A program made the translations under genes and the position numbers. A stretch of 64,000 bases of DNA, taken from Acidobacteriota bacterium. GTDB taxonomy: Bacteria; Acidobacteriota; Terriglobia; Terriglobales; Acidobacteriaceae. Below, in pieces: positions 3,989-18,931 of this stretch; the stretch's first letter is position 1; every line of letters begins with the position of its first letter. The notes below the pieces were generated by a model. The model did no database searches, was not told the origin of the DNA, and saw only the letters and a list, made by a program, of their open reading frames with translations. Location: positions 60,894 through 124,893 of the forward strand of contig QIAM01000001.1 of assembly GCA_003225555.1 (NCBI GenBank), in the 5' to 3' direction.

Positions 3989-4981
3989 TCAGGGTGTGAT
4001 CACGGCGGCGCCGTCGATCAAGTCGTTCTTGACCGCTATCAAGGCTTCATTCACCTGATCGAGAGAAAATACAGTCCCCTTGGGCTTGAGACCGATCTGC
4101 GCGGCGAGCTGGAGGAAATCGCGAGCGTCGGCGCGGGTCATGTTGGTTACGCTGCGGAGCTGGCGCTCGGCCCAGAGGAGCCGGTCATAATCGAATTCAG
4201 GGACGCGGTCAAGATGAATCGCGTTGATCGCTACCACGCCTCCCTTGCGCAGGCTGGCGAGCGCGGCGACGACGACATCTCCGCTGGGCGCGAAGGTGAT
4301 GGCGCGGTCAAGTTGCACCGGCAGCTTCTCCTTCTCGGTACCTACCCAGGTCGCTCCAAGAGACGTCGCCAGCTGACGATGGGACTCCCCGCGTGTGGAG
4401 ACATACACCTCGCATTTCCAGGCACGCAGAACCGCGATCGCGAGGTGAGCCGACGCTCCGAATCCGAACAGGCCGATCCGCTCGCCGGGCTCTACTCCGG
4501 CCACACGCAGGCTGCGGAAGCCGATGATCCCGGCGCACAGCAGCGGAGCGGCTTGTAGGTCGTCGAGTTGGGCGGGAAGCGGAAAGACAAAATCAGCGCG
4601 TGCGACCGAGTATTCCGCATATCCGCCAGCGACCGTGTAACCGGTAAACGTCGGCGAATCGCACAGATTCTCCATCCCTCGGCGACAGTAGCAGCAGCTT
4701 CCGTCGGTGCCGCCGAGCCAGGAGACACCGACGCGCGTGCCCAGCGGAAGGTCTGCGGTAGCTCCGTCAACGATCTCGCCGACGATTTGATGACCGGGCG
4801 TGATGTGATTCTGCACGGGTGGCAACTCTCCTTCCACGATGTGAAGGTCGGTGCGGCAAACTCCGCAGGTCCGCACGCGCAGTAGAACTTGTCCCGGGCG
4901 AGGCTGCGGAGCGGGCACGTCAGCGATTCGTAGCGGCCGATGTTGAACATTCTGCGGAGATGTAAGAAGCGCGGCCTTCAT
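3989..4981 (-). CDS. Zinc-dependent alcohol dehydrogenase family protein
   Basis: [10 protein letters not shown]..., [25 protein letters not shown], structural-zinc cysteines [15 protein letters not shown]. Confidence 0.88.
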
Positions 4982-5197
4982 GATTTCAGCTCTGACTACT
5001 CTGATTATGAGCGTAGAGCGGCCAGTTTGCGCTGGCACATTCAAGGAAAAAAGCTGACGATCGCGAAAGGGGCGCGGTCTTCTCGTGCGTACCCTAAATT
5101 AGCGACTATCGACGCCCCTACATCGGAGCTACAATCCGCCTCGCCATACGAGCGTTCGAGTTCCAGGATCCAAACGTTTATCTCGCAAGGTGAGGCT

Positions 5198-6589
5198 ATG
5201 TCGGTCCACTCCAAGGAAGAAGTCTTCTCGAATCTCGACGACGAGGTATTCGGGACCAGTTTCCTTCCACGTCCGCTGCCCAAGTACAGGTTTCCCGGGC
5301 AAGAGTCGGATCCTACCGCGGCATATCAACTGGTGCACGATGAGCTGCTGCTCGACGGAAACTCGCGGCAGAACCTTGCCACATTCTGTCAGACCTGGGT
5401 CGAGCCCGAAGTGCGGAAGTTGATGGATGAATGCATCGACAAGAACATGATCGACAAGGACGAGTATCCGCAGACGGCGGAAATCGAGTCGCGCTGCGTT
5501 CACATGCTTGCCGATTTGTGGAACTCTCCCGACGCTGCAAATACGCAGGGTTGCTCCACCACTGGTTCGAGCGAGGCGGCGATGCTGGGCGGACTGGCGA
5601 TGAAGGCAAGATGGCGCACGAAGCGCCAGGATGCGGGTAAGCCGTCGAGCAAGCCCAACCTGATTTGCGGCCCAGTACAAATCTGCTGGCACAAGTTTGC
5701 CCGGTATTTTGATGTGGAACTCCGCCAGATTCCTTGCCAGGGGCAGCGCCTGCATATGTCGCCGGAAGAAGTTCTCAAACGCTGCGATGAGAACACCATC
5801 GGAGTCGTGGCCACGCTCGGGGTTACGCATACACTTCAGTACGAGCCCGTGCAGGCGGTCTGCCTCGCGCTCGATGATTTTGAAGAAGAGCGTGGGCTTA
5901 ATATTCCAGTTCATGTCGACGCCGCGAGCGGCGGATTCATCGCACCTTTCATTCATCGTTCTGTGGTCTGGGACTTTCGCTTGCCGCGGGTCAAGTCGAT
6001 CAATGCTTCCGGGCATAAGTTTGGTCTTGCCCCGCTGGGATGTGGTTGGGCTATCTGGCGTGAAACTGGAGATCTGCCGGAAGAATTGATCTTCCGCGTA
6101 AAGTATCTGGGCGGAAACATGCCGACATTCGCGCTGAACTTTTCGCGTCCGGGAGGACAGGTCGTAGCCCAGTACTACAATTTCGTCCGGCTTGGTCGCG
6201 AGGGCTACACCAAGATCACTCAGGGCTGCGCCGATGTCGGGGCGTGGTTCGCGGACGAGGTCAAGAAGTTGGGGATGTTCGAACTGATCTACGATGGACG
6301 TGGCGGGATTCCGGGATGCACGTGGACTCTGAAGAAGAGCCAGGACCACTTTTTTACCCTTTACGACTTGGCGGATCGCTTGCGGGTGAAGGGATGGCAG
6401 GTGCCCGCGTATCCGATGCCGGCCAAGAGAAGCGATCTGATCGTGCAGCGCGTGCTGGCGCGGCTGGGGTTCAGTCGGGACCTGGCTGGGCTACTGATGG
6501 AAGACCTGCAGCGTGCCATCAAACATTTCCAGACAAATCCCTCTCCGAAGTCTCTCTCTCGCCAGAGTGCGGGTGGATACCACCACTGA
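5198..6589 (+). CDS. gadB: Glutamate decarboxylase (PLP-dependent)
   Basis: [74 protein letters not shown] (PLP-lysine). Confidence 0.92.
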
Positions 6590-6937: not shown

Positions 6938-7969
6938 ATGGCGGACATGCATGAGGGCGAACTGGAAATGGAACTGGAAGACGAGTTCCACGAGGGCGAA
7001 AGCGAAGACGAATCAAGTCTGGAAGGCGAGGGCTGGCTCGGCGCCATCGGCAACGTGGTCGGCAGCCTGCTGGGTGAGGGCGAAGAGGAGGACGAAAGCT
7101 CCTTTGAAGCCGAAGACGAGAGTGCCTTCGAAGCCGAAGACGAACTTGAGGATGAATCGAGCCTCGAGGGTGAGGGCTGGCTGGGCACTATAGGCAACGT
7201 CGTGGGTAGCCTGCTCGGCGAAGGTGAAGACGAGTTCGAGGACGAGAGTGCCTTCGAAGGCGAGGATGAAGGCGAGGAGTTCTTCGGCAAGATTGGAAAA
7301 TTCCTCAAGAAGGCCGCTCCCATGCTAAAGAGAGTCGCCAAGATTGCCGCTCCCATCGTGGGTACGGCGGTCGGCGGCCCGTTCGGAGCTGCGCTCGGCG
7401 GCCTGGCCAGCAAGGCCTTAGGCGAGGGCGAGTATGAGGATGAGCTCGAAGGTGAAACCGAGGCAGAGGGCGAAGCAGAAATGACGCACGAGATTGCCGC
7501 CCACGAACTGACTCACAATGAGGCTGTAGCCGAGATGATGGCGGAGGCTGCCTCTCTGGAAGCACATGAGGGCGAAGCCGAAGCCATGGCTGGGGCTGCC
7601 GCCGCTACCGTCATTTCGCCGCGCGACCGCAGAGCCTTGCGGCGAATCCTCCCCCACATGGTTCGGGGCACGGCAATTCTTACGCGAATCTTGCGCCGTC
7701 GGCGTCTTACCCGGCCTGCGGTGCGCGTCGTCCCCACGATTGTTCGCCGCGCCGTGAAAGATCTGAAACGGCAAGCGGCCAAGGGGATTCCTATCACTCG
7801 CAAAACCGCGGCCCGCGCTGCAGCCAAACAGGTGCGTAAGGTGCTGAGCAGTCCAAGGGCCTGCGCCGCCGCCATCACTCGCAACGTGAAGGTGAGCCGT
7901 TCCTATAAGCGGCCGCGCCGGCGTATGCGTGGGCGGCTGCAACGTCGCCGTCGCTCCGCACTCCGCTAA
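6938..7969 (+). CDS. Charge-segregated protein A: acidic N-terminal half, embedded cationic amphipathic segment, strongly basic C-terminal domain
   Basis: RBS gaggagg upstream of ATG; two copies of DESSLEGEGWLG[AT]IGNVVGSLLGEGE; FFGKIGKFLKKAAPMLKRVAKIAAPIVG; basic tail RRALRRILPHMVRG...RRRRSALR. Confidence 0.85.
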   Translation: MADMHEGELEMELEDEFHEGESEDESSLEGEGWLGAIGNVVGSLLGEGEEEDESSFEAEDESAFEAEDELEDESSLEGEGWLGTIGNVVGSLLGEGEDEFEDESAFEGEDEGEEFFGKIGKFLKKAAPMLKRVAKIAAPIVGTAVGGPFGAALGGLASKALGEGEYEDELEGETEAEGEAEMTHEIAAHELTHNEAVAEMMAEAASLEAHEGEAEAMAGAAAATVISPRDRRALRRILPHMVRGTAILTRILRRRRLTRPAVRVVPTIVRRAVKDLKRQAAKGIPITRKTAARAAAKQVRKVLSSPRACAAAITRNVKVSRSYKRPRRRMRGRLQRRRRSALR

Positions 7970-8030
7970 TCGGACCTGAGTTTGAGTCACAGGCCCGCAA
8001 CGTCCGACCACTATTGCAGGAGGAAGCGTC

Positions 8031-9074
8031 ATGGCATATGAGTCCGAGAGTGAACTGATCCAGGCCGAACTCGAGGATGAATACTCGGGGGAAGGTGAAG
8101 ACGAGATGGAAGACGAGTACGAGGACGAATCCAGCCTGGAGGGCGAAGGCTGGCTCGGCGCCATCGGCAATGTGGTCGGAAGTCTTCTTGGCGAAGGAGA
8201 AGACGAGTACGAGGACGAGAGCGCGTTCGAGTCCGAGGACGAAGCCGAGGATGAGATCAGCCCCATCCGCAAGATCTATCCTGACGCCATGATGGAGCAT
8301 CTGGGTGAACTGGCGTTTGAGGCGGAGAGCGAAGATGAGGCCGCCGAGCATTTTCTGCCGCTCATCGGCATGGCCGCCAGCAAACTGCTGCCGGTTGTGG
8401 CCAAGGCAATCGCGCCCATGGCGAAGAAGGCGCTGCCCAAGATCGCGCGGGCAGTGACGAGAGCTACTCCACGGCTGACCAAAGGCATTGGACAGGTCGC
8501 GAGGACGCTCCATCGTAATCCGCAGACTCGTCATCTGCTGAAGACGGTGCCGGCGATTGCCCGACGCACGGTGGGGAGCATCGCCCGCCAGGCTGCGCAT
8601 GGCCGGAACATCAATCCACGCACCGCCGTGCGGACGCTGGCCAAACAGGCACGGCGAGTGCTTGCTCATCCGCAGCAGCGCCGGCACGCGCTGCGCCATC
8701 ACAATCAGCTCGAGCGTAAATTCCACGGACGTTACGCACGTGGGATGGCACGGCCGCACTGGCGTTATGGCCGCTATCCTTACCGGTCCGGTCGTGGTCG
8801 GGTTCGCGGCGGCGCGGCTCCGGGATACGCTGCATCGCGTCCGGGCACGCCTGGCTACGCAGTTTCCGGCACGCCCGGATACGCAGCTGCGGGCGCGGTA
8901 CCGAGGATCGGCGTGCCTGGCGCGGGTGGACGCCCGGGCCGGTACGGACAGGTTGTCGGGGGACAATGCACGTGTGCGGCCTGTCCGGCCAGTGGCGGAA
9001 GCCCGGCCCAATCAACTTCAACTCCAACGCCAACTCCTGCCTACTGCCGTTGCTGCGGGCAAGTGTTGAGATAA
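8031..9074 (+). CDS. Charge-segregated protein B, paralogue of protein A, with PGYA-rich linker and Cys-cluster tail
   Basis: RBS aggagg; one copy of DESSLEGEGWLGAIGNVVGSLLGEGE; basic segment TVPAIARRTVGSIARQAAHGRNINPRTAVRTLAKQARRVLAHPQ alignable with protein A; CTCAAC and CRCC at C-terminus. Confidence 0.85.
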   Translation: MAYESESELIQAELEDEYSGEGEDEMEDEYEDESSLEGEGWLGAIGNVVGSLLGEGEDEYEDESAFESEDEAEDEISPIRKIYPDAMMEHLGELAFEAESEDEAAEHFLPLIGMAASKLLPVVAKAIAPMAKKALPKIARAVTRATPRLTKGIGQVARTLHRNPQTRHLLKTVPAIARRTVGSIARQAAHGRNINPRTAVRTLAKQARRVLAHPQQRRHALRHHNQLERKFHGRYARGMARPHWRYGRYPYRSGRGRVRGGAAPGYAASRPGTPGYAVSGTPGYAAAGAVPRIGVPGAGGRPGRYGQVVGGQCTCAACPASGGSPAQSTSTPTPTPAYCRCCGQVLR

Positions 9075-9098: not shown

Positions 9099-10439
9099 AT
9101 GGCAACGCTGATCGAAACCATGCCGACGACAACCACCGGGGAAACGCCGGTTTCCCGGCAGCGCCCGAAAGCTGCTGGCGGTCCGGCTCCGGTGATGTTG
9201 CCATGGCTGCGGGCGCAATCGATCAACGTGACCCGGCACGCGGCGGCGCTCCGTCCCTTCAAGGCCGACGAGTTCGGAACTGGCGCGGAGGCTCCCACCG
9301 CTGGACACATTCAGGCGGTCAACAAGCTGATCACAGGCCTGAGAAGTAGCCTTCTGAAAATGTCCGGTAGGGTAAGCAAGTCCGTCTCGGTGGCCGCCGA
9401 GGAGCCGAGCACTTCTCGTCTGCAGGATGTGATGAGGAAGAAGGAGCACGCCCACAAGTGGGTCCGCGGAATCGAGAAGATTTGGGACTTCTACTTTGAG
9501 CTCTTCGGACAACGGCAGACTCGCTACGCGAAGTGGTTGCTGAGTTGCGACCGCATTGGCCTGGATTGTTACCGGGCCTATTATCTGGGGATCGGAGTAG
9601 CTCGGCCGATTCCCTCTCCGCCACCGTTTTCCTATATGGCAACGGGATTCGCTCCGGCCACGTTTCGCCGAGGGATCCCGCTCAAGAAATTGGGAAAGCA
9701 ACTGAATCCTTTCCCGCTTGTGCAGTTGCCCTACCACCGGCTGGTCAATCCCTGGACGCTGGGGGCGGTGATGCACGAGATCAGTCACAACCTGCAGAAC
9801 GATCTGGGACTCAACAAAGACATTCCGCGAAAAGTTGGCGTGAGTCTGCTCAAAGCCGGCGCGAGCCGTCAGGTCGCACGGACTTGGGTGCGATGGAACC
9901 GCGAGATGTTTGCCGACATGAGCGGCCTGATGCTCGGCGGTCCCGGCTTCGCCGGCTCGCTGATGGATATTTTGGCACGAGGGCCGGAGACGGTGGTGTA
10001 TTACAGCTCGCGAGGGCCGCACCCCACGCCGTATTTGAGGATGCTGATCAACACCGAACTGCTGCGGCGCATGGGATTCGAGTCGGAGAGCAGACAGTAT
10101 CGCAAGGCCTGGATGCGTATTTATCCCAACCCTTCCTCTGGAAGCATACCGCCGGCGGTGTTGAAATCGTTCAGTGAAGCTTGTCCGATTGCGGTGGATG
10201 CGATGTGTTACCAACCCTATCGCACGCTTGGCAATCGCAGCCTGGCCAAGGTGTTGAACTTTGGCAACAAGGAACAGCAGATGATCGAAGAAGCATCGCG
10301 GCGTTTGGCCGCGGGCGTGGATCCCGGAATTATCCCCGAGCGTTTCCTGATTGGGGCCGTGCGCTTGGCTTTGGACCGCCGCCATGCACGGCCGGAAATA
10401 CTAACCAAGAACTTCTATCGCGCTTTGGCGAGCGGATAA
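9099..10439 (+). CDS. Putative zinc metalloprotease of unassigned family
   Basis: LGAVMHEISHNLQNDLG (HExxH) followed by NREMFADMSGLMLGG, a plausible glutamate third-ligand motif. Confidence 0.7.
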   Translation: MATLIETMPTTTTGETPVSRQRPKAAGGPAPVMLPWLRAQSINVTRHAAALRPFKADEFGTGAEAPTAGHIQAVNKLITGLRSSLLKMSGRVSKSVSVAAEEPSTSRLQDVMRKKEHAHKWVRGIEKIWDFYFELFGQRQTRYAKWLLSCDRIGLDCYRAYYLGIGVARPIPSPPPFSYMATGFAPATFRRGIPLKKLGKQLNPFPLVQLPYHRLVNPWTLGAVMHEISHNLQNDLGLNKDIPRKVGVSLLKAGASRQVARTWVRWNREMFADMSGLMLGGPGFAGSLMDILARGPETVVYYSSRGPHPTPYLRMLINTELLRRMGFESESRQYRKAWMRIYPNPSSGSIPPAVLKSFSEACPIAVDAMCYQPYRTLGNRSLAKVLNFGNKEQQMIEEASRRLAAGVDPGIIPERFLIGAVRLALDRRHARPEILTKNFYRALASG

Positions 10440-10443
10440 ACAG

Positions 10444-11004
10444 ATGGCACTGGAAGCAACATTTCGACAGCTGTCGGTAAGTCTTCACAAGCTGCATGAC
10501 GCGCTCAATGCGCTTCACGTGACGATTGGAGACAAGCCCACGCACGATGAGGCAGCACTGGCGGATGGATTGGAGAATGCTCTTTTGGACATCATGGGAA
10601 CGCTGCACGAGGCACGCCGATCTGCATTGCAGGCGCGCCAGGCAGTCGGGCATCCGCCAGATCACGATCGTGCTCGGCGTGCGCTCACCCTTTGCCAGGA
10701 GCGTTTTCACCGCATCGAGCAGCAGTTCGCGTCGGATCTGGTTTCCTACGAAAAGATCAAGGAACTCGCCCGACTGGGCAATGAGCGGCGGGCGTGGCTG
10801 CCCTGGGCCGGCACCGTAAAGCTTGGGATCGAGCAATGCCGTCTGCCCCTGGAACAAACCAGCACGGTCTTGGCATCGTGCTGGCAGGAACTGGCGGAGC
10901 GAGCAGGAACCACCTCGATTTCGGTGCGCAACGCGATTGTGGGACAAAAGATCGTCGCGCGGGATGTGCGCGCCAGGGATGATATCGCTGAACGAGTCAC
11001 TTGA
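10444..11004 (+). CDS. Hypothetical helical protein in the acidic-protein cluster
   Basis: ATG 4 nt after the upstream stop; 186-aa helix-rich ORF; no recognised family. Confidence 0.75.
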   Translation: MALEATFRQLSVSLHKLHDALNALHVTIGDKPTHDEAALADGLENALLDIMGTLHEARRSALQARQAVGHPPDHDRARRALTLCQERFHRIEQQFASDLVSYEKIKELARLGNERRAWLPWAGTVKLGIEQCRLPLEQTSTVLASCWQELAERAGTTSISVRNAIVGQKIVARDVRARDDIAERVT

Positions 11005-11049
11005 CTGGCAGCAGAAGTGGGTCTGTCGATACCGTATCCGGAGGTCTTT

Positions 11050-12225
11050 ATGGCGGAAGTCAAAGTATGCGTCAATTTCTTCGATGACTCGAATCAAAGC
11101 CCTATCTACGTGGCACAGGACACCGAACTGCAAGTCCGTCATTCGGGAGGCGGCAAGTGGATCACGGTGAAACTCGGAGCCAAGAGCGAGAAGGGATTCC
11201 AACATTTTGAGGTACCCAAAGAAATAGTGGAAGCAAGAAAGGGGACGGAGCCGCTCTTTGCGGAACTCAGGCTGTCCGCCGGCCCCGAGGTTGGGTGCAC
11301 ACGCTACGCGACCTCTACCGTGACGTTCCTGGTGAAAGAGGAATCGGATGCAGATTGCTGCTGCATTCCTTGTCCTCTCCATAGGCTGGCGGAGGCCTGC
11401 AGCATAAAGTTTCGTGCCTTTGATGCCAGTGAGGAGGACTTCATCAAGAACGCGAAGGTGTTCCAAAGCAGCGTGGACTGGGTTGTGACCGCCGTCCGCG
11501 CGCCCGTGATCACACATGAATCTACTGCCAAATCGCATGCGGCGACCCTCCCATCTGCCCCTAGGTTTCAACCGTTTACTTCCTCCGCCAGAAGCGTGGA
11601 TGGCATTGCCGAAATCTTCGACGTGCCGCTCCATGGTCTGTACCAAATCGAGGCCCGGGCACCGGAAGGATATATCAGCGAGGGAGGGGCCCTGCAGTAT
11701 CGCTACATCTGCTGTGAGCGAAGCGTGGACATAAAGCACTATTTCCGGCCTTGTGGTAAGCGTCCCACTCGCTCCGCGGTTTTTGTTCAGCAGAAATGCC
11801 AGGGCATCCGATGGGGAAAGGGAACCACGGTGCTGGTGGGCAACAGGGAGGTAACCATCGGGGAAGACGGGATCATGAAGATACCGAACGACTTGAACGG
11901 AGTGCTTCCCGTAAGCTCCGCGGGAAAAGCATTCACCCCGTCGTCCCTCGACTTGCGCGAGGGTGCGCCCCCGGTCACCACGGTTGCCGTCTCCGATCAG
12001 CCGGTGACGGCAAGCGGACGCAACGCCGAGGGCTTACTGCTCGACCACACGAACAAGCCATTCGTGGGCCGGCGCGTGGCGGTACTGCTGCCCAACGGGG
12101 ATGAAACTGAAGTATTGACCGACCAGCAGGGACGTTTTCAAGCTCCCTCTGGAAGCACGGTTTACGCCAGAGAAGATGAGTGGGGATTGGCAACCGAACG
12201 GGTTTATCTGACCGAAAAGATTTGA
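11050..12225 (+). CDS. Hypothetical protein with carboxypeptidase-regulatory/Ig-like segments
   Basis: MAEVKVCVNFFDDS start; GLLLDHTNKPFVGRRVAVLLPNGDETEVLTDQQGRFQAPSGSTVYA resembles a CarboxypepD_reg-like repeat; Cys-rich DCCCIPCP. Confidence 0.7.
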   Translation: MAEVKVCVNFFDDSNQSPIYVAQDTELQVRHSGGGKWITVKLGAKSEKGFQHFEVPKEIVEARKGTEPLFAELRLSAGPEVGCTRYATSTVTFLVKEESDADCCCIPCPLHRLAEACSIKFRAFDASEEDFIKNAKVFQSSVDWVVTAVRAPVITHESTAKSHAATLPSAPRFQPFTSSARSVDGIAEIFDVPLHGLYQIEARAPEGYISEGGALQYRYICCERSVDIKHYFRPCGKRPTRSAVFVQQKCQGIRWGKGTTVLVGNREVTIGEDGIMKIPNDLNGVLPVSSAGKAFTPSSLDLREGAPPVTTVAVSDQPVTASGRNAEGLLLDHTNKPFVGRRVAVLLPNGDETEVLTDQQGRFQAPSGSTVYAREDEWGLATERVYLTEKI

Positions 12226-12240
12226 GCCAGGAGGAATGTT

Positions 12241-13842
12241 ATGGCAGGGATCATTTTGAAGGGTGTACGAGCGGCTGCGAAGGTCGCTAAGAATCCGATT
12301 GCGGATCTTGCCGCGTATCCAATCCTCACTGAGGAAGTGGGCTATCCACCCTCGCCGCTGGCAACTCCAGGAACGAGCGGAAGTGGTGGCGGCGGAAGCA
12401 CCGGCGGGCTCGGTCAGATCGTCAACAAGGCCGTGGGCGAAGTCCTAGGCTGGAAGCTCAAGGCCGGCGACACGAAAGGCTTCCTCGGTGCTCTCAACCA
12501 GTCTTTCACCCTTACCGAGGTGGAAGGCCACGTTGAATCCAAATGGGCGCCTCGCACTTATGCAATTCAAACCGACCTGGCGGGAGGCATCACTGGCGCA
12601 CAGGCCAGCGTTTATGCCCGCGGCAAAGAGGCCCTCGACCAATCGATGCCTCTGTTGGACGGTCTCTACACTCTGGATCCCGAAGCTGATACCGAGGACG
12701 TGGTCGCCCTGAAGGCGGTAGTCAAGAGCCAGTTCACCGAACTCGTCAATGAACTCGCCTTCCTCAGCGGACCCAGGATCGCACGGGTGAACCAGTACTT
12801 TTCCCTGTTGCTGATCGATGCAAATTCTACGGCCAAGTTTCCTCCGGCTCTCGGCGCGCCTCCGCTTGTGGTCGATCCCGACCAACTCGGAGGCACACTG
12901 GGAAATCTTCGCGACGTTCTCGGCCTGAACTTCACCGACCAGGATTTTGTGAACTCCGTGGGAGACGAGCAGAATCTTTCGAACTTCCGCATACTGGCGG
13001 ACTACGTAACTTCGCTGGCCCAGAGCTGGATCAACAACGTCCCGTTCTTTGGGCTGGATGCTCCGAAACCCTTCTTCGGAACGCAACTGGTGCTGTTGTC
13101 ACGGCAGTTGTCGGTGGTGGCTGAGTCGGTTGATGAGGTTCGCTTCACTCTTGACTCGGTGTTCATTGGTCCTGCAGAGCGGCAATCCACCAAGCTGACA
13201 TATCCCTTCGTGCCCGAGCTGAAAGCGATCTTTCTCGAAGATCTGCTCTCGTGGATTCACAATTTCGCGGCGGAAGAAGGCCCCAGGCTCATCACGGACG
13301 GCGGAAAGTTTGGTGTGCAGAATACTTTCACGCCTGTGGTTCGCCAGCTCCTCAGCTTTATCGTGAATTTACCCAGTAGCCCCAGCGTGGCGAATCCTTT
13401 GCCCGCCGGCTTCTTCGCACCACGCGTAAGACTTTCGCTGGACGACCTGGTCGATCAGCTGCAATCACTGATCACTCTGGCCGCTCCAATCAAGCACGAG
13501 ATCACTTCGGAACCCGACTTCGGGTTGCCGTTCGGAGTGGAGGCCGTGGTGCCGATCTTTCTGAGCGACTTGCCCCAGGGATCGACTTCATCGTCGATTC
13601 CTGTGCATGTCAGAGGTGATGGCTTCCAGGCTCCGACAACTCCTGCGACGGTAGCATTCGTGGGGCCAGGCGCACCAACAGTCGCCGGAGTGTTCTTCCG
13701 CTCCGACACGCTGCTGATCGTGAGGCTGAAGACCCAGACCTTCCCGTTACCCCTGTTGAACTTCGGGACCTGGGACGTCGTGGTCACGAATGCTGATGGA
13801 CAACAAGTGACGCTGAAAGCGGGCTTCACCGTCGGCCCGTGA
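12241..13842 (+). CDS. Hypothetical protein with C-terminal IPT/TIG-like domain
   Basis: RBS aggagg; C-terminus SSIPVHVRGDGFQ...VAFVGPGAPTVAGVFFRSDTLLIVRL...GTWDVVVTNADGQQVTLKAGFTV. Confidence 0.75.
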   Translation: MAGIILKGVRAAAKVAKNPIADLAAYPILTEEVGYPPSPLATPGTSGSGGGGSTGGLGQIVNKAVGEVLGWKLKAGDTKGFLGALNQSFTLTEVEGHVESKWAPRTYAIQTDLAGGITGAQASVYARGKEALDQSMPLLDGLYTLDPEADTEDVVALKAVVKSQFTELVNELAFLSGPRIARVNQYFSLLLIDANSTAKFPPALGAPPLVVDPDQLGGTLGNLRDVLGLNFTDQDFVNSVGDEQNLSNFRILADYVTSLAQSWINNVPFFGLDAPKPFFGTQLVLLSRQLSVVAESVDEVRFTLDSVFIGPAERQSTKLTYPFVPELKAIFLEDLLSWIHNFAAEEGPRLITDGGKFGVQNTFTPVVRQLLSFIVNLPSSPSVANPLPAGFFAPRVRLSLDDLVDQLQSLITLAAPIKHEITSEPDFGLPFGVEAVVPIFLSDLPQGSTSSSIPVHVRGDGFQAPTTPATVAFVGPGAPTVAGVFFRSDTLLIVRLKTQTFPLPLLNFGTWDVVVTNADGQQVTLKAGFTVGP

Positions 13843-13923: not shown

Positions 13924-15096
13924 ATGGCGACCGAAAAAGAGTATCAAGGCTTATATGACCGTATAGCGGCACTACGGGAGCAGGTGACGAGCAAGTTGTC
14001 GGCCGACTTGATCTCGAACCCGCAACTCGCCGATGCGCTCACCAAGCAGATTGATGACATGTTGGCCTCCGTGGTGGACGCCGATGCAAAGACGACACCG
14101 CCCCCGGATAAGGGCCTTGCACAGTTAGCTGGTATCGGGCCTGAGGCTGCGAAGGAATTCGGCACGACGCGGGTTCCGGCTGGTGTCGAGCCATACGACG
14201 AGACCATCACCTCCGAACGCATCATGGCAGTCGGAGATATGTACTACCTCTGGCAGCATGAGAAGATCGGTGTCTTCCGCGTGGTCCAGAAGCTGCAAGA
14301 GTTGTTCAAGGCCGGCACGGTGCGGCTGTCCGCTGGTCCGGGCGCATTTGCCCTCTACCAGTTTGATCGCCGCGACGTGCTGCGCTATACGAAGAGCGAT
14401 CGGCTCTCGGCTTACAAGCGCATCTTCGGATACGGCGCAGCACCAGTCCCGACCGGCTCGCGTGCCAACAGCGATTTCCACAAGTTGTTTGCTCACTTCG
14501 TTCACCAGGTCACTCTGTTCTGGCGTGACAAGCGCATTTCTGACGTGATCCGTGAACGGGCCTACGATCCGAGCTTCGGGTCCATCGCGATCGTACGGCG
14601 CGCAGGTCTGGATTTGCGCAACAACCTCAAGTGGTTGTCCTTCGGCCACTTGAATGTGCTCCGCGTGGAGGTGATGCAACTGCTCGACGAGGCGTTCAAG
14701 ATCCTCGACTCCGACGACGTCAAGCGCCTCTTCGGTGCTGACAACGCATGGGATGTGGTGGAAGAAGTGCTGATCCGCTACCACAACGAGCGCCTGGTGA
14801 CCTCGCCCCGTCAACGCATGGGCGTTACCGGACGCGAAGTGCTGCGCTGGCTGGCACAGCCGCATATTCTGCAGACCACGCGCGCACAGTTTGAAACCCT
14901 GCTGCTTGAGATCGCGGAACAGTCCGAAGAATGGCTCACGAGTGCGCAAGCGATGGGCCTGGGTAAGCGCACCGGATCGCACCGCGTCCTCCCCTGGGAC
15001 CAGACTCAACCGACGCCCATCAAGGCAAACGGCCGGCAGAAAGCGGGGGTTTCTCCGCAGCGGGCGCCGGCTCGCGAGTTCGAGTATGAAGTCTGA
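13924..15096 (+). CDS. Conserved-looking hypothetical protein of the cluster
   Basis: RBS ggaggg; 390-aa ORF; no family recognised; ends REFEYEV. Confidence 0.75.
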   Translation: MATEKEYQGLYDRIAALREQVTSKLSADLISNPQLADALTKQIDDMLASVVDADAKTTPPPDKGLAQLAGIGPEAAKEFGTTRVPAGVEPYDETITSERIMAVGDMYYLWQHEKIGVFRVVQKLQELFKAGTVRLSAGPGAFALYQFDRRDVLRYTKSDRLSAYKRIFGYGAAPVPTGSRANSDFHKLFAHFVHQVTLFWRDKRISDVIRERAYDPSFGSIAIVRRAGLDLRNNLKWLSFGHLNVLRVEVMQLLDEAFKILDSDDVKRLFGADNAWDVVEEVLIRYHNERLVTSPRQRMGVTGREVLRWLAQPHILQTTRAQFETLLLEIAEQSEEWLTSAQAMGLGKRTGSHRVLPWDQTQPTPIKANGRQKAGVSPQRAPAREFEYEV

Positions 15097-15398: not shown

Positions 15399-16268
15399 AT
15401 GCGCGACGCCGATTTTGAGCTGGAAGCCGAACTGGAAGAATTGATGAGCGTTCTCTTAGAGAGCGATCTGGAGTCAGAGGCCGAAAGCGAAGCCCCAGCA
15501 TGCGACAACAAAGGTTTGCCCACGCCGAGCCGCGCGATCAGCAGGTTGTCAAGCGGGAGAATCCAATGCCCTGCTGCCGGTCGCTGGGGAATTTTGGACG
15601 TGGTCATCAACAATGCCGTACAGATGCTCGATAACACAATTGCCGAACTTACCAGAGCTCGCCAAGCGGCTTGCGAGGGCAGACCTTTGGGTTGGCCTAA
15701 CCTCAGCGATGTGACGGCGTGCTGGTTGAAGTACAAGCTTGGGGTGTGCATTGATGATCCCTCCACATGGACGGCTGGGACCTTCCAATCAAGTACTGTG
15801 GCGGAAGTTATCCGCAGGCTGGTAAAGCCCAGAGAGCTTCTTGCAAGCGGCGAGATCCTCTACGTGTGCGAGGAGACATGCAATCCTGAAACCTTGTTCG
15901 CTTTTACTTTCCCTATGCTTAGCGGCCGATGCAATGCCGGAACCCCCGATCGAACTATCCACTTGTGCCCACGGTTCTGGTCCGCCGAACACGCTCCCTT
16001 CAAAGAGCAAACAATCATCCATGAAGCAGTTCATCTGACACACTGCGGTGAACACCGGCCCGACACCATTGGAATTGGAGTCAGTATCGGATCGCCGGAA
16101 TGCTTGGCCCAGTTCGTGGCGGCAAACAACGGAAAGAAATTAGATCCTACTACCGTCGGGCAGTGCGGATTCACGAACCGATGTGGCACGGTCCCACGGG
16201 ACGCAATACGCCGGAACTGTGGCGGAATCGTTGGCAGGCCCGGTGGGTTGCCGGATTGGCGGCCCTGA
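15399..16268 (+). CDS. Acidic-leader protein with HExxH metallopeptidase-like domain
   Basis: RBS ggagg; MRDADFELEAELEELMSVLLESDLESEAESE leader; IIHEAVHLTHCGEH. Confidence 0.75.
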   Translation: MRDADFELEAELEELMSVLLESDLESEAESEAPACDNKGLPTPSRAISRLSSGRIQCPAAGRWGILDVVINNAVQMLDNTIAELTRARQAACEGRPLGWPNLSDVTACWLKYKLGVCIDDPSTWTAGTFQSSTVAEVIRRLVKPRELLASGEILYVCEETCNPETLFAFTFPMLSGRCNAGTPDRTIHLCPRFWSAEHAPFKEQTIIHEAVHLTHCGEHRPDTIGIGVSIGSPECLAQFVAANNGKKLDPTTVGQCGFTNRCGTVPRDAIRRNCGGIVGRPGGLPDWRP

Positions 16269-16285
16269 TTCCGAGGACATAATGC

Positions 16286-17449
16286 ATGCGCGACACCGAA
16301 CTCGAACTCGAACTCGAAGACCTGATGAATGTTCTTGCAGAGAGCGACCTCGAGTCGGAGGCGGCGTGGGAAGCAGAGCACGACCAAAAGATCCCCGCTT
16401 TGCGTTGCACAACCGTAGGAAAACGGGTTGGCAGCTTCGTTTGCTCCCCTTGGGACCTGGCTAGAATCATCGGCTTTCTGGGCGTTCCTGTCTCCCCCAA
16501 TGTCTTGCAGGCGGCGGTGGAAGCGGCGGCGGGTGCGGCTGTTACGTTGGCCACCACCGCGGCGGCCTCATTGGACCTGCTCAATCGGACAAATGCATCA
16601 AGAGTGGAATTCTGCGCGGCTTTTGGAGTCGCTCCAGATTTCGTCCCTGCCTGGAGAGCCACTCAACCGGGCATTGTCAACTGGAAAGATCTGGGAGAGC
16701 TGGTAGCCCTGAGGCTGCGAGACGCTGCGAAAATTCTCGATGGCGGGTGCATCCGATATTTTTCTTTGGGAAGTCCGGCTTATTGTGCGGAATGCACAGA
16801 GGATCCATCGGCTTACTTCGCCTGCAGCAGTTGGAAGGGCGGCTACACAATCTGCCTTGGTTCCGGATTCTGGCAAAAGTGGCAAGCAGGGGGTCTAGTC
16901 GACACCGACTTGACACTTCTACACGAGGCCCTTCACATCTATTTCGGCAAAACTGTCGCGCACAAGGGCCGAACAGGCAACGCAAATTGCTACACGAACT
17001 TCGTTGCGCGCGCCAACGGACTAACCATCCCTCAGAGAATTACGAGAAAGTGTCCGCCCGGATCGTGCGCTCCACTTCCGGCGACAATTCTTGACGACTT
17101 CCGGATCGACCACGTCGAGCTGCTGCCGCATCACACGCCACTAGTCGACAATATCGCTACCACAGTCGTGGCAAGCTGGAAGACCCGCAGCCCCATTCGA
17201 ATCGTTGCGTTGCTGGGTTTCGCAGACTCCACAGGCGCCCCAAAGAATAACTTCGACTTGGGGGAAGGGCGTGCGATTGCGGCTCGAGACGGGATTGCCG
17301 CTGCCATACGCAGGCTGGATCCGGCAGTGGCCGGGAAAGTGGCCTTCATACCCCTGACCCGGGGCGCGGACGGAGCAATCGCACCGAATGCCACTGCCGC
17401 CGGGCGAGCAAAAAATCGTCGTGTGGAAGTGACGCTATTGCCGAGCTAG
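16286..17449 (+). CDS. Acidic-leader protein with HExxH metallopeptidase-like domain and C-terminal OmpA-like domain
   Basis: MRDTELELELEDLMNVLAESDLESEAAWEAE leader; LLHEALHIYFG...NANCYTNFVARANG; IRIVALLGFADSTGAPKNNFDLGEGRAIAARDGI...AKNRRVEVTLL (OmpA-like). Confidence 0.8.
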   Translation: MRDTELELELEDLMNVLAESDLESEAAWEAEHDQKIPALRCTTVGKRVGSFVCSPWDLARIIGFLGVPVSPNVLQAAVEAAAGAAVTLATTAAASLDLLNRTNASRVEFCAAFGVAPDFVPAWRATQPGIVNWKDLGELVALRLRDAAKILDGGCIRYFSLGSPAYCAECTEDPSAYFACSSWKGGYTICLGSGFWQKWQAGGLVDTDLTLLHEALHIYFGKTVAHKGRTGNANCYTNFVARANGLTIPQRITRKCPPGSCAPLPATILDDFRIDHVELLPHHTPLVDNIATTVVASWKTRSPIRIVALLGFADSTGAPKNNFDLGEGRAIAARDGIAAAIRRLDPAVAGKVAFIPLTRGADGAIAPNATAAGRAKNRRVEVTLLPS

Positions 17450-17500: not shown

Positions 17501-18931
17501 GTGGAGCCTAGCCGCGCTCTTCAATACGCCAGAACCAACCGTTCGAAGTTCCTCTCCGAGCTCAAGGAATTTCTCCGCTTTCCTAGTGTGAGTTCGCAGC
17601 CTGAGCGGGCCGCTGACGTTCGAAGATGCGCCCGTTGGCTGGCCCGCCATTTGCAGCATATCGGGCTGGAGCGCGTGCGGATAATTCCTACTCGTGGCAA
17701 TCCCATTGTCTACGCCTCGCGGCAACGAGCGAGAAACCGGCCCACAGTTTTGATTTATGGACACTACGATGTTCTGCCCGGAGAGCCTCTTTCTCAATGG
17801 CATACTCCGCCCTTCACTCCGACTATCCGCGGACCCGACCTCCACGCCCGGGGCGCCGCGGATGACAAGGGACAACTCTTCTGCCATGTCAAGGCTCTGG
17901 AGTCTTATCTACATACCTCACGCGCTCTGCCAATCAACGTGAAGTGCATCTTTGAAGGCGAAGAAGAAATTGGCAGCACTCACCTGCTGCCCTTGATCGC
18001 ACGAAACAAGGACGCTCTTCGCGCCGATGCTGCTCTGATCTCTGATACGAAAATGTTGGCACCTGGCCGGCCTGCGATCAGTTACGCGCAGCGCGGCGGG
18101 CTGCGAGCAGAAGTCGAAGTGCGCGGGCCCGGGCAGGAACTGCACTCGGGCACCTTTGGAGGCGCAGTTTTGAATCCTGTCCAGGCGCTCTGTGAAATCA
18201 TTGCCAGCCTGCATGACGAGCAAGGTCGCGTGACGCTTCCCGGCTTCTACGACGACGTCCGAGAGTGGAGCGAAAAGGAACGCGCTTACATGGCGCGCAC
18301 CGGCCCCAGCGATGAAAAAATTGTGCGAGACGCAACAGTCGGGCAAGGATGGGGCGAACCCGGCTACACCTTGTACGAGCGCACCACCATTCGCCCGGCC
18401 CTGACTCTGAACGGCATCGCGGGGGGACACTACGGTCCGGGTGTAAAGGGAGTGATCCCGACGCGTGCCGTGGCCAAGTTGAGCTTTCGTCTGGTACCAG
18501 ACCAGGATCCTGAACGAATCGGCAAACTTTTTCGCGAGCACGTCGCCCGGATCACGCCGTCGGCTGTTGAATCCCAGGTGAGAACTTTGTCCCCTATCCA
18601 ACCCGCTCTCGTCGATCGCGACCATCCGGCTGTGCGTACCGCCGGCTTTGCCTACAAAAAAGGATTCGGAGCTTTCCCTGTGTTCTTGCGTTCTGGCGGT
18701 TCGATCCCTGTCGTGAACGCATTCCAGGAGGCGCTGGGCATCCCGACAGTGCTCATGGGCTTTGGGCTGCCCGATGACCGCATCCACGCGCCCAACGAGA
18801 AATTCCACCTGCCCAATTTCTACCGCGCAATTGATACCTCGATCTGGTACCTGGCCGCAGCGGCCCGCACCCTGCGTGGTTCGAGCCGAGTTGGACGTGC
18901 GGACCGACTTGAGAGGGAGTGGAGCGCATGA
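17501..18931 (+). CDS. M20-family metallopeptidase (dipeptidase-like)
   Basis: GTG start; LIYGHYDVLPGEPLSQWHTPPF, GAADDKGQL, CIFEGEEEIGSTHL metal-site motifs. Confidence 0.9.
   Translation: MEPSRALQYARTNRSKFLSELKEFLRFPSVSSQPERAADVRRCARWLARHLQHIGLERVRIIPTRGNPIVYASRQRARNRPTVLIYGHYDVLPGEPLSQWHTPPFTPTIRGPDLHARGAADDKGQLFCHVKALESYLHTSRALPINVKCIFEGEEEIGSTHLLPLIARNKDALRADAALISDTKMLAPGRPAISYAQRGGLRAEVEVRGPGQELHSGTFGGAVLNPVQALCEIIASLHDEQGRVTLPGFYDDVREWSEKERAYMARTGPSDEKIVRDATVGQGWGEPGYTLYERTTIRPALTLNGIAGGHYGPGVKGVIPTRAVAKLSFRLVPDQDPERIGKLFREHVARITPSAVESQVRTLSPIQPALVDRDHPAVRTAGFAYKKGFGAFPVFLRSGGSIPVVNAFQEALGIPTVLMGFGLPDDRIHAPNEKFHLPNFYRAIDTSIWYLAAAARTLRGSSRVGRADRLEREWSA

What the first reader, a model, noticed from the sequence alone, without database searches (positions are those of the whole stretch)
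6938..9074. Paralogous proteins with extreme charge segregation (acidic N-half, basic C-half)
Protein A begins GELEMELEDEFHEGESEDESS and ends RRMRGRLQRRRRSALR. Protein B begins SESELIQAELEDEYSGEGEDEMEDEYEDESS and then carries a long K/R-rich segment. The basic parts align (VPTIVRRAVKDLKRQAAKGIPITRKTAARAAAKQVRKVLSSP versus VPAIARRTVGSIARQAAHGRNINPRTAVRTLAKQARRVLAHP). Hypotheses: masked membrane-active precursor, nucleic-acid-binding or coacervating diblock polymer, or surface matrix protein.
Basis: partly seen in the sequence, partly recalled or inferred. Interest (0 to 1): 0.75.

Follow-up and report, generated by a model that had tools for sequence, protein, structure and literature searches.

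The report
Acid-base diblock pair in mobile cassette
Two neighbouring sister genes make proteins with a strongly negative front and a strongly positive back; they form the constant head of an undescribed, horizontally moving soil-bacterial gene cassette whose cell-wall-directed enzymes carry similar acidic front ends, which suggests a charge-based way of gathering those enzymes.

Summary
Two real, paralogous genes (A 6938-7969, B 8031-9074) encode proteins with an acidic, largely unstructured N-terminal part and a basic helical C-terminal domain. Charge segregation is far beyond shuffles, and both halves are under purifying selection. They match no Pfam, NCBIfam, PHROG, PADLOC or PDB family, and the model of B matches no solved fold. 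They are not isolated: A-B is the invariant head of a syntenic cassette, A-B-C(HExxH zincin)-D-(E)-F-G-[accessory genes]-J-K plus a LuxR-type regulator. It occurs sporadically in Acidobacteriota, on a Paraburkholderia megaplasmid and in a Chloroflexota-labelled contig, and the tree of C indicates horizontal transfer. Accessory proteins with unrelated domains (M35 and trypsin-like peptidases, an OmpA-like protein) have no signal peptide and carry acidic alternating-Glu leaders like the starts of A and B. Acidic and basic half-charges co-vary across homologues. Best-supported mechanism, inferred and not shown: A/B are self-associating charge-coded scaffolds that gather acid-tagged hydrolases. 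Main rival: masked membrane-active precursors cleaved by a co-encoded protease. Contractile injection and encapsulin systems are absent from the window genome and from a complete carrier.

The parts
6938..7969 (+). Gene A: diblock protein, 343 aa (acidic residues 1-212, basic 213-343)
7034..7075 (+). A: hydrophobic motif copy 1, WLGAIGNVVGSLLG, embedded in acidic sequence
7178..7219 (+). A: hydrophobic motif copy 2, WLGTIGNVVGSLLG
7283..7417 (+). A: cationic amphipathic segment and glycine-rich stretch FFGKIGKFLKKAAPMLKRVAKIAAPIVGTAVGGPFGAALGGLASKALG
7574..7966 (+). A: basic helical domain shared with B, ending in an Arg-rich tail
8031..9074 (+). Gene B: diblock protein, 347 aa
8151..8192 (+). 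B: hydrophobic motif, WLGAIGNVVGSLLG
8262..8747 (+). B: helical domain, residues 78-239 (block pLDDT mostly 64-94); acidic residues 17-80 below 50
   Evidence: AlphaFold2 model
8976..9071 (+). B: Cys-rich tail CTCAAC...CRCCG (absent from the Chloroflexota-labelled copy)
9099..10439 (+). Gene C: zincin-like protein without Sec signal; HEISH, H226/E227/H230 and E269 invariant also in remote homologues
10444..11004 (+). Gene D: conserved cassette protein, unknown
11017..12225 (+). Gene E: weak Ig-like matches below Pfam cut-off; present in only some cassettes
12241..13842 (+). Gene F: conserved cassette protein, unknown
13924..15096 (+). Gene G: most conserved cassette protein (80-92% identity across cassettes); C-terminus AREFEYEV
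15399..16268 (+). Gene H: accessory M35 zincin with acidic leader MRDADFELEAELEELMSVLLESDLESE (Pfam hit made with the upstream-extended ORF)
16286..17449 (+). Gene I: accessory protein with OmpA-like C-terminus and acidic leader MRDTELELELEDLMNVLAESDLESE
17501..18931 (+). Gene J: M20 peptidase, conserved cassette member
18919..19797 (+). Gene K: amidohydrolase_2, conserved cassette member
19813..20277 (-). Gene R: LuxR/GerE-type regulator at the cassette edge, found in 10 loci besides the window

Best explanation
A and B are paired, self-associating charge-coded scaffold proteins of a horizontally transferred cassette. Their acidic tails, studded with short hydrophobic motifs, pair electrostatically with the basic helical domains within and between molecules to form a condensed assembly. 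That assembly also binds the acidic alternating-Glu leaders of co-encoded hydrolases and wall-binding proteins, collecting and perhaps silencing them until release (proteolysis by C, or lysis). Shown: the genes, conserved charge architecture, shared cassette, acidic leaders on unrelated accessory proteins, no recognisable Sec signals, purifying selection, horizontal transfer. Inferred: assembly, leader recognition by the basic domain, the wall as target, release.
For: Half-charges co-vary: A r=-0.82 (P=3.6e-4), B r=-0.83 (P=4.7e-4), not corrected for phylogeny. Similar leaders: in L045 the A start MAYSQETEWEMELEEELEGLGEFE matches an unrelated upstream neighbour MQYSHETEWEMDLLKEFEEITEFE, score 81 against 26 +/- 5.5 for shuffles; B_G015 versus its M35 neighbour 55 against 32 +/- 6; A_win versus I_win 51 against 26 +/- 5. 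Leaders sit on an M35 zincin, an OmpA-like protein, a Trypsin_2 protein and unknown proteins. The leader profile hits 4 of 8 carrier genomes strongly and no non-carrier above noise; all hits whose position was checked lie in cassettes. No hydrophobic Sec-like segment in A-K. Hydrophobic motifs are matched between A and B of a locus yet differ at synonymous sites, e.g. SRVP_8 with identical peptide, so this is not recent gene conversion. G and A/B co-occur exactly in the 61 genomes searched for both.
Against: No interaction or assembly data. Four of 8 carriers show no leader-profile hit, and several cassettes have no accessory gene between G and J, so A/B must do something without such cargo. 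PG-binding accessory proteins in L033 and L039 have only a weak EEEME-type leader. Cargo leaders lack the WLGAIGNVVGSLLG motif. Leader matches are partly composition-driven: the A_win/H_win pair is not significant (P=0.17). A carries a net negative charge. Charge co-variation rests on 13-14 related sequences. The RX15 copy of B has weak charges (-5/+15).
Confidence: 0.38

Rival explanations
1. Masked membrane-active precursors: the acidic tails neutralise cationic amphipathic and glycine-rich helices in A and B; protease C cleaves them, and the freed basic parts permeabilise membranes, possibly letting the co-encoded hydrolases out or in.
For: High hydrophobic-moment cationic segments (A 118-135, moment 0.74, charge +7; B 136-153, 0.75, +5); glycine-rich stretch in A; a HExxH zincin directly after B in every cassette; acidic and basic charges co-vary.
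Against: The basic domain of B is modelled as a structured helical region rather than a free peptide. No conserved cleavage motif between the halves was identified. C has no signal peptide, its catalysis is untested, and no immunity gene was recognised. The leaders on H and I have no cationic partner in the same protein to mask.
Confidence: 0.25
2. The acidic leaders are an export signal for an undescribed Sec-independent route, and A/B are its carriers or first substrates.
For: Acidic leaders on unrelated wall-directed proteins without Sec signals.
Against: No pore, ATPase or membrane protein was recognised among A-K. Contractile systems are absent from the window genome and complete carrier G014, and published eCIS leaders are described as slightly positive (PMC11297309).
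Confidence: 0.15
3. Nucleic-acid-binding or nucleoid-like proteins: the basic helical domain and Arg-rich tail bind DNA or RNA, and the acidic tail regulates binding.
For: About 30% Lys/Arg in the C part of A; Arg-rich C-terminus; Cys-rich tail in B.
Against: No DNA-binding fold or family match. The Arg-rich tail of A and Cys tail of B are lost in divergent homologues. The cassette is rich in hydrolases and holds only a LuxR regulator as DNA-linked gene.
Confidence: 0.1
4. Extracellular matrix or surface-coat proteins, with wall-binding proteins as anchors.
For: PG_binding_1 and OmpA-like accessory proteins.
Against: A and B have no Sec signal, membrane span or sorting motif.
Confidence: 0.07

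Closest known systems
Synthetic diblock polyampholytes and complex coacervates (general knowledge)
   Same: Oppositely charged blocks in one chain with half-charges that track each other
   Different: The basic block is predicted to be a structured helical domain; the acidic block carries conserved hydrophobic motifs; assembly untested
Acidic-propiece antimicrobial precursors (frog-skin and defensin type; general knowledge)
   Same: Anionic pro-part balancing a cationic amphipathic part
   Different: About 340 aa, no signal peptide, cationic domain larger and predicted structured, acidic leaders also on enzymes
eCIS cargo loading (Danov et al. 2024, PMC11297309)
   Same: N-terminal leaders without Sec signal on diverse enzymes
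   Different: Leaders here are acidic; described eCIS leaders are slightly positive at residues 6-21; no sheath or gp25 in the window genome
Encapsulin cargo targeting
   Same: Short hydrophobic peptide motifs in disordered segments
   Different: No Linocin_M18 gene in the window genome, complete carrier G014 or G015
Paraburkholderia phymatum pBPHY01 locus L059:10641-16296
   Same: A protein with an EY-rich acidic repeat front plus FLGGL-like segment sits directly before a C-like zincin and near a K homologue (52% identity)
   Different: No alignable A/B basic domain; relationship by neighbourhood and layout only

Membership tests
Extracellular contractile injection system or T6SS | Tail sheath (PF04984) and gp25 baseplate (PF04965) | tested here: not met
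   Absent from window genome G000 (86% complete) and carriers G014 (100% complete), G015, G005, G024; present in carrier G036 and some non-carriers
Encapsulin nanocompartment | Linocin_M18 shell protein in all carriers | tested here: not met
   3 of 6 carriers; absent from G000, G014, G015
Phage or prophage structural proteins | Match to PHROGs or presence in viral contigs | tested here: not met
   Only weak PHROG matches for A (E=0.0027) and E; the solid one is OmpA-like I, function unknown; no relatives in phages or viral contigs (the A and B patterns were low-complexity)
Known anti-phage defence system | PADLOC family match of core proteins | tested here: not met
   None for A, B, C, E, F, G, H; weak Cas6-like hit for D (E=0.0019); the ZorB/MotB hit for I reflects its OmpA domain
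Curated protein family for A/B | Pfam or NCBIfam match above cut-off | tested here: not met
Solved structural fold for B | Foldseek match with E <= 0.001 | tested here: not met
   None (best E 0.5), on a model of mean pLDDT 63.6
Acidic-propiece membrane-active precursor | Proteolytic separation of the halves and membrane lysis | not testable with these tools
   Only amphipathicity and the adjacent zincin gene could be computed
Coacervating diblock or scaffold | Salt-sensitive self-assembly and leader binding | not testable with these tools
   Only charge pattern and co-variation computed
Zincin peptidase (gene C) | HExxH and a downstream glutamate conserved | tested here: met
   H226, E227, H230, E269 invariant in 16 sequences including remote homologues; catalysis not tested

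The most novel reading that the evidence does not exclude
A mobile cassette with a charge-coded, Sec-independent sorting system: acidic alternating-Glu leaders on structurally unrelated hydrolases and wall-binding proteins are read by dedicated polycationic helical scaffold proteins that carry the same kind of acidic front themselves and condense with it.
Probability: 0.28. Interest if true: 0.85.

Novelty: categorically new. Interest (0 to 1): 0.62.

Why it matters
A conserved, horizontally transferred set of 9-10 core genes found under three phylum labels and absent from the curated libraries searched would be a new bacterial functional module. If the acidic leaders are read by the basic scaffolds, it would be a charge-based addressing system for enzymes without signal peptides, testable with purified pieces and in the isolate Silvibacterium bohemicum.

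Tried and rejected
Contractile injection and encapsulin: tested by family search and rejected as requirements. Phage origin: no hits. Known defence: PADLOC gave only incidental hits. Housekeeping fold: no fold match. Gene conversion as the only reason that motifs match between A and B: synonymous differences argue against it. The AlphaFold2 model of G failed (mean pLDDT 34.9) and was not used. Literature searches found no description of the cassette, but only open-licence papers are held. My recollection of other unannotated Glu-rich front-end proteins near peptidases in soil bacteria was used only as a lead.

Full report
OBSERVATION. ORFs A (6938-7969) and B (8031-9074) exist as described. 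Charge segregation is extreme against composition-preserving shuffles: variance 44.2 versus 6.4 +/- 1.7 for A, 30.0 versus 4.7 +/- 1.3 for B. A and B are paralogues through their basic domain: hhalign 99 columns, 35% identity, probability 99.9. Both reading frames are conserved as an adjacent pair in 8 of 101 relatives, and dN/dS is 0.06-0.28 in acidic and basic parts where dS is not saturated. So both halves are selected proteins, not a translated repeat.

ANATOMY. Acidic parts: A net -33 to -67, B net -27 to -47 (RX15 -5). Basic parts: A +24 to +44, B +18 to +41 (RX15 +15). Magnitudes co-vary (A r=-0.82, B r=-0.83; not phylogeny-corrected). The acidic parts hold short hydrophobic motifs: WLGAIGNVVGSLLG in the window, FLGGILGE repeats in G005/G036, FLGSIVRGIGGMLG in L047. 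The version is usually matched between A and B of a locus while codons differ. A also holds a cationic amphipathic segment and a glycine-rich stretch. AlphaFold2 on B gives low confidence for residues 17-80 and a better-supported helical region at 78-239 (mean pLDDT 63.6, pTM 0.50); no PDB fold matches. Most B proteins end in a Cys-rich tail.

CASSETTE. tblastn of window genes against loci shows the order A-B-C-D-(E)-F-G-[accessory]-J-K in Acidobacteriota MAGs, in the isolate Silvibacterium bohemicum S15 (L042) and on the Paraburkholderia sp. PGU19 megaplasmid (L031), and A-B-C-D up to the contig end in a contig labelled Chloroflexota (L047). A LuxR-type gene flanks it in ten loci besides the window. 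G is 80% identical between the window and Paraburkholderia. Among 61 relatives G occurs exactly where A/B occur. It is sporadic: 2 of 396 phylum-wide genomes, a thin sample. In the tree of C, cassettes of the window's own genus fall into two groups mixed with Silvibacterium and with Terriglobia SRVP_8, which indicates horizontal transfer. A glutamate decarboxylase precedes A in the genus-level loci but was not found in L041-L045, L047 or L031, so I treat it as a neighbour.

TAGGED ACCESSORY GENES. Between G and J lie variable genes. In the window H is an M35 zincin and I has an OmpA-like end; in others there are Trypsin_2, PG_binding_1, M35-like and unknown proteins. Most start with an acidic alternating-Glu leader, consensus MRDAxLELEAELExLMxVLxESDLESE; two PG_binding_1 proteins have only a weak one. 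The leader profile hits four carrier genomes strongly (G000, G014, G015, G040) and no non-carrier above noise. In L045, where A has a different start, the upstream neighbour has the matching start (16 of 29 residues identical; score 81 against 26 +/- 5.5). No cassette protein shows a Sec-like hydrophobic segment (hydropathy only, no trained predictor). G ends in AREFEYEV or AREFEFEV, a similar alternating pattern.

MECHANISM. I favour a charge-coded scaffold: acidic tails and basic helical domains of A and B pair within and between molecules, and acidic leaders of accessory enzymes join the same assembly. This explains the half-charge co-variation, the leader similarity, the locus-matched hydrophobic motifs and the lack of export signals. 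It is inference; assembly, binding, target and release are not shown. A masked membrane-active precursor cleaved by zincin C is the main rival and shares much of the evidence. An unknown export route, nucleic-acid binding and a surface matrix are less supported.

KNOWN SYSTEMS. No Pfam or NCBIfam match, no convincing PHROG or PADLOC match, no viral relatives. Contractile injection genes are missing from the window genome and from a complete carrier, and published eCIS leaders are slightly positive rather than acidic (PMC11297309). Encapsulin is present in only half of the six carriers tested. Remote homologues of C and G occur in other peptidase-rich clusters (S8, CHAT, C25, patatin, PLD), so the cassette may belong to a wider undescribed class.

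LIMITS. The large genome scan was truncated; the Chloroflexota and most Acidobacteriota records are MAGs; charge co-variation and leader similarity rest on few, related sequences; the novelty rating concerns family and cassette, not a demonstrated function.

Noticed in passing
window 4940-6589 (+): Glutamate decarboxylase (Pyridoxal_deC) directly upstream of A in the genus-level loci but not found in L031 or L041-L045/L047: probably a neighbour, possibly recruited.
   Followed up: partly
L037:9731-11020 (+), G014 contig C23: A solo A homologue among housekeeping genes has net charge near 0 in its N part, with KLGGL/GKLG-type repeats in place of the acidic tail.
   Followed up: partly
L059:10641-14704 (P. 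phymatum pBPHY01): A GEYQ-repeat front plus FLGGLMRNIG protein lies directly before a C-like zincin, with a K homologue at 15568: possibly a divergent cassette.
   Followed up: partly
L056:7521-19426 (Burkholderia pyrrocinia plasmid): Several paralogous unknown proteins share a FPxFVxxLIxGVF...SSxxQM core next to a G homologue, an S8 peptidase and an amidase; Tolypothrix plasmid L055 has a related set.
   Followed up: no
L039:10369-12280 (G024): A and B are both interrupted by frame breaks near ambiguous bases (X), so probably assembly error rather than decay.
   Followed up: no
L032:17648-17797 (-): A short antisense fragment of J (60% identity, 50 aa) between G and the I homologue marks past rearrangement at the accessory site.
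   Followed up: no
L031:4653-4754: A GIM-2 beta-lactamase annotation predicted by RGI rests on about 102 bases and is likely spurious.
   Followed up: no
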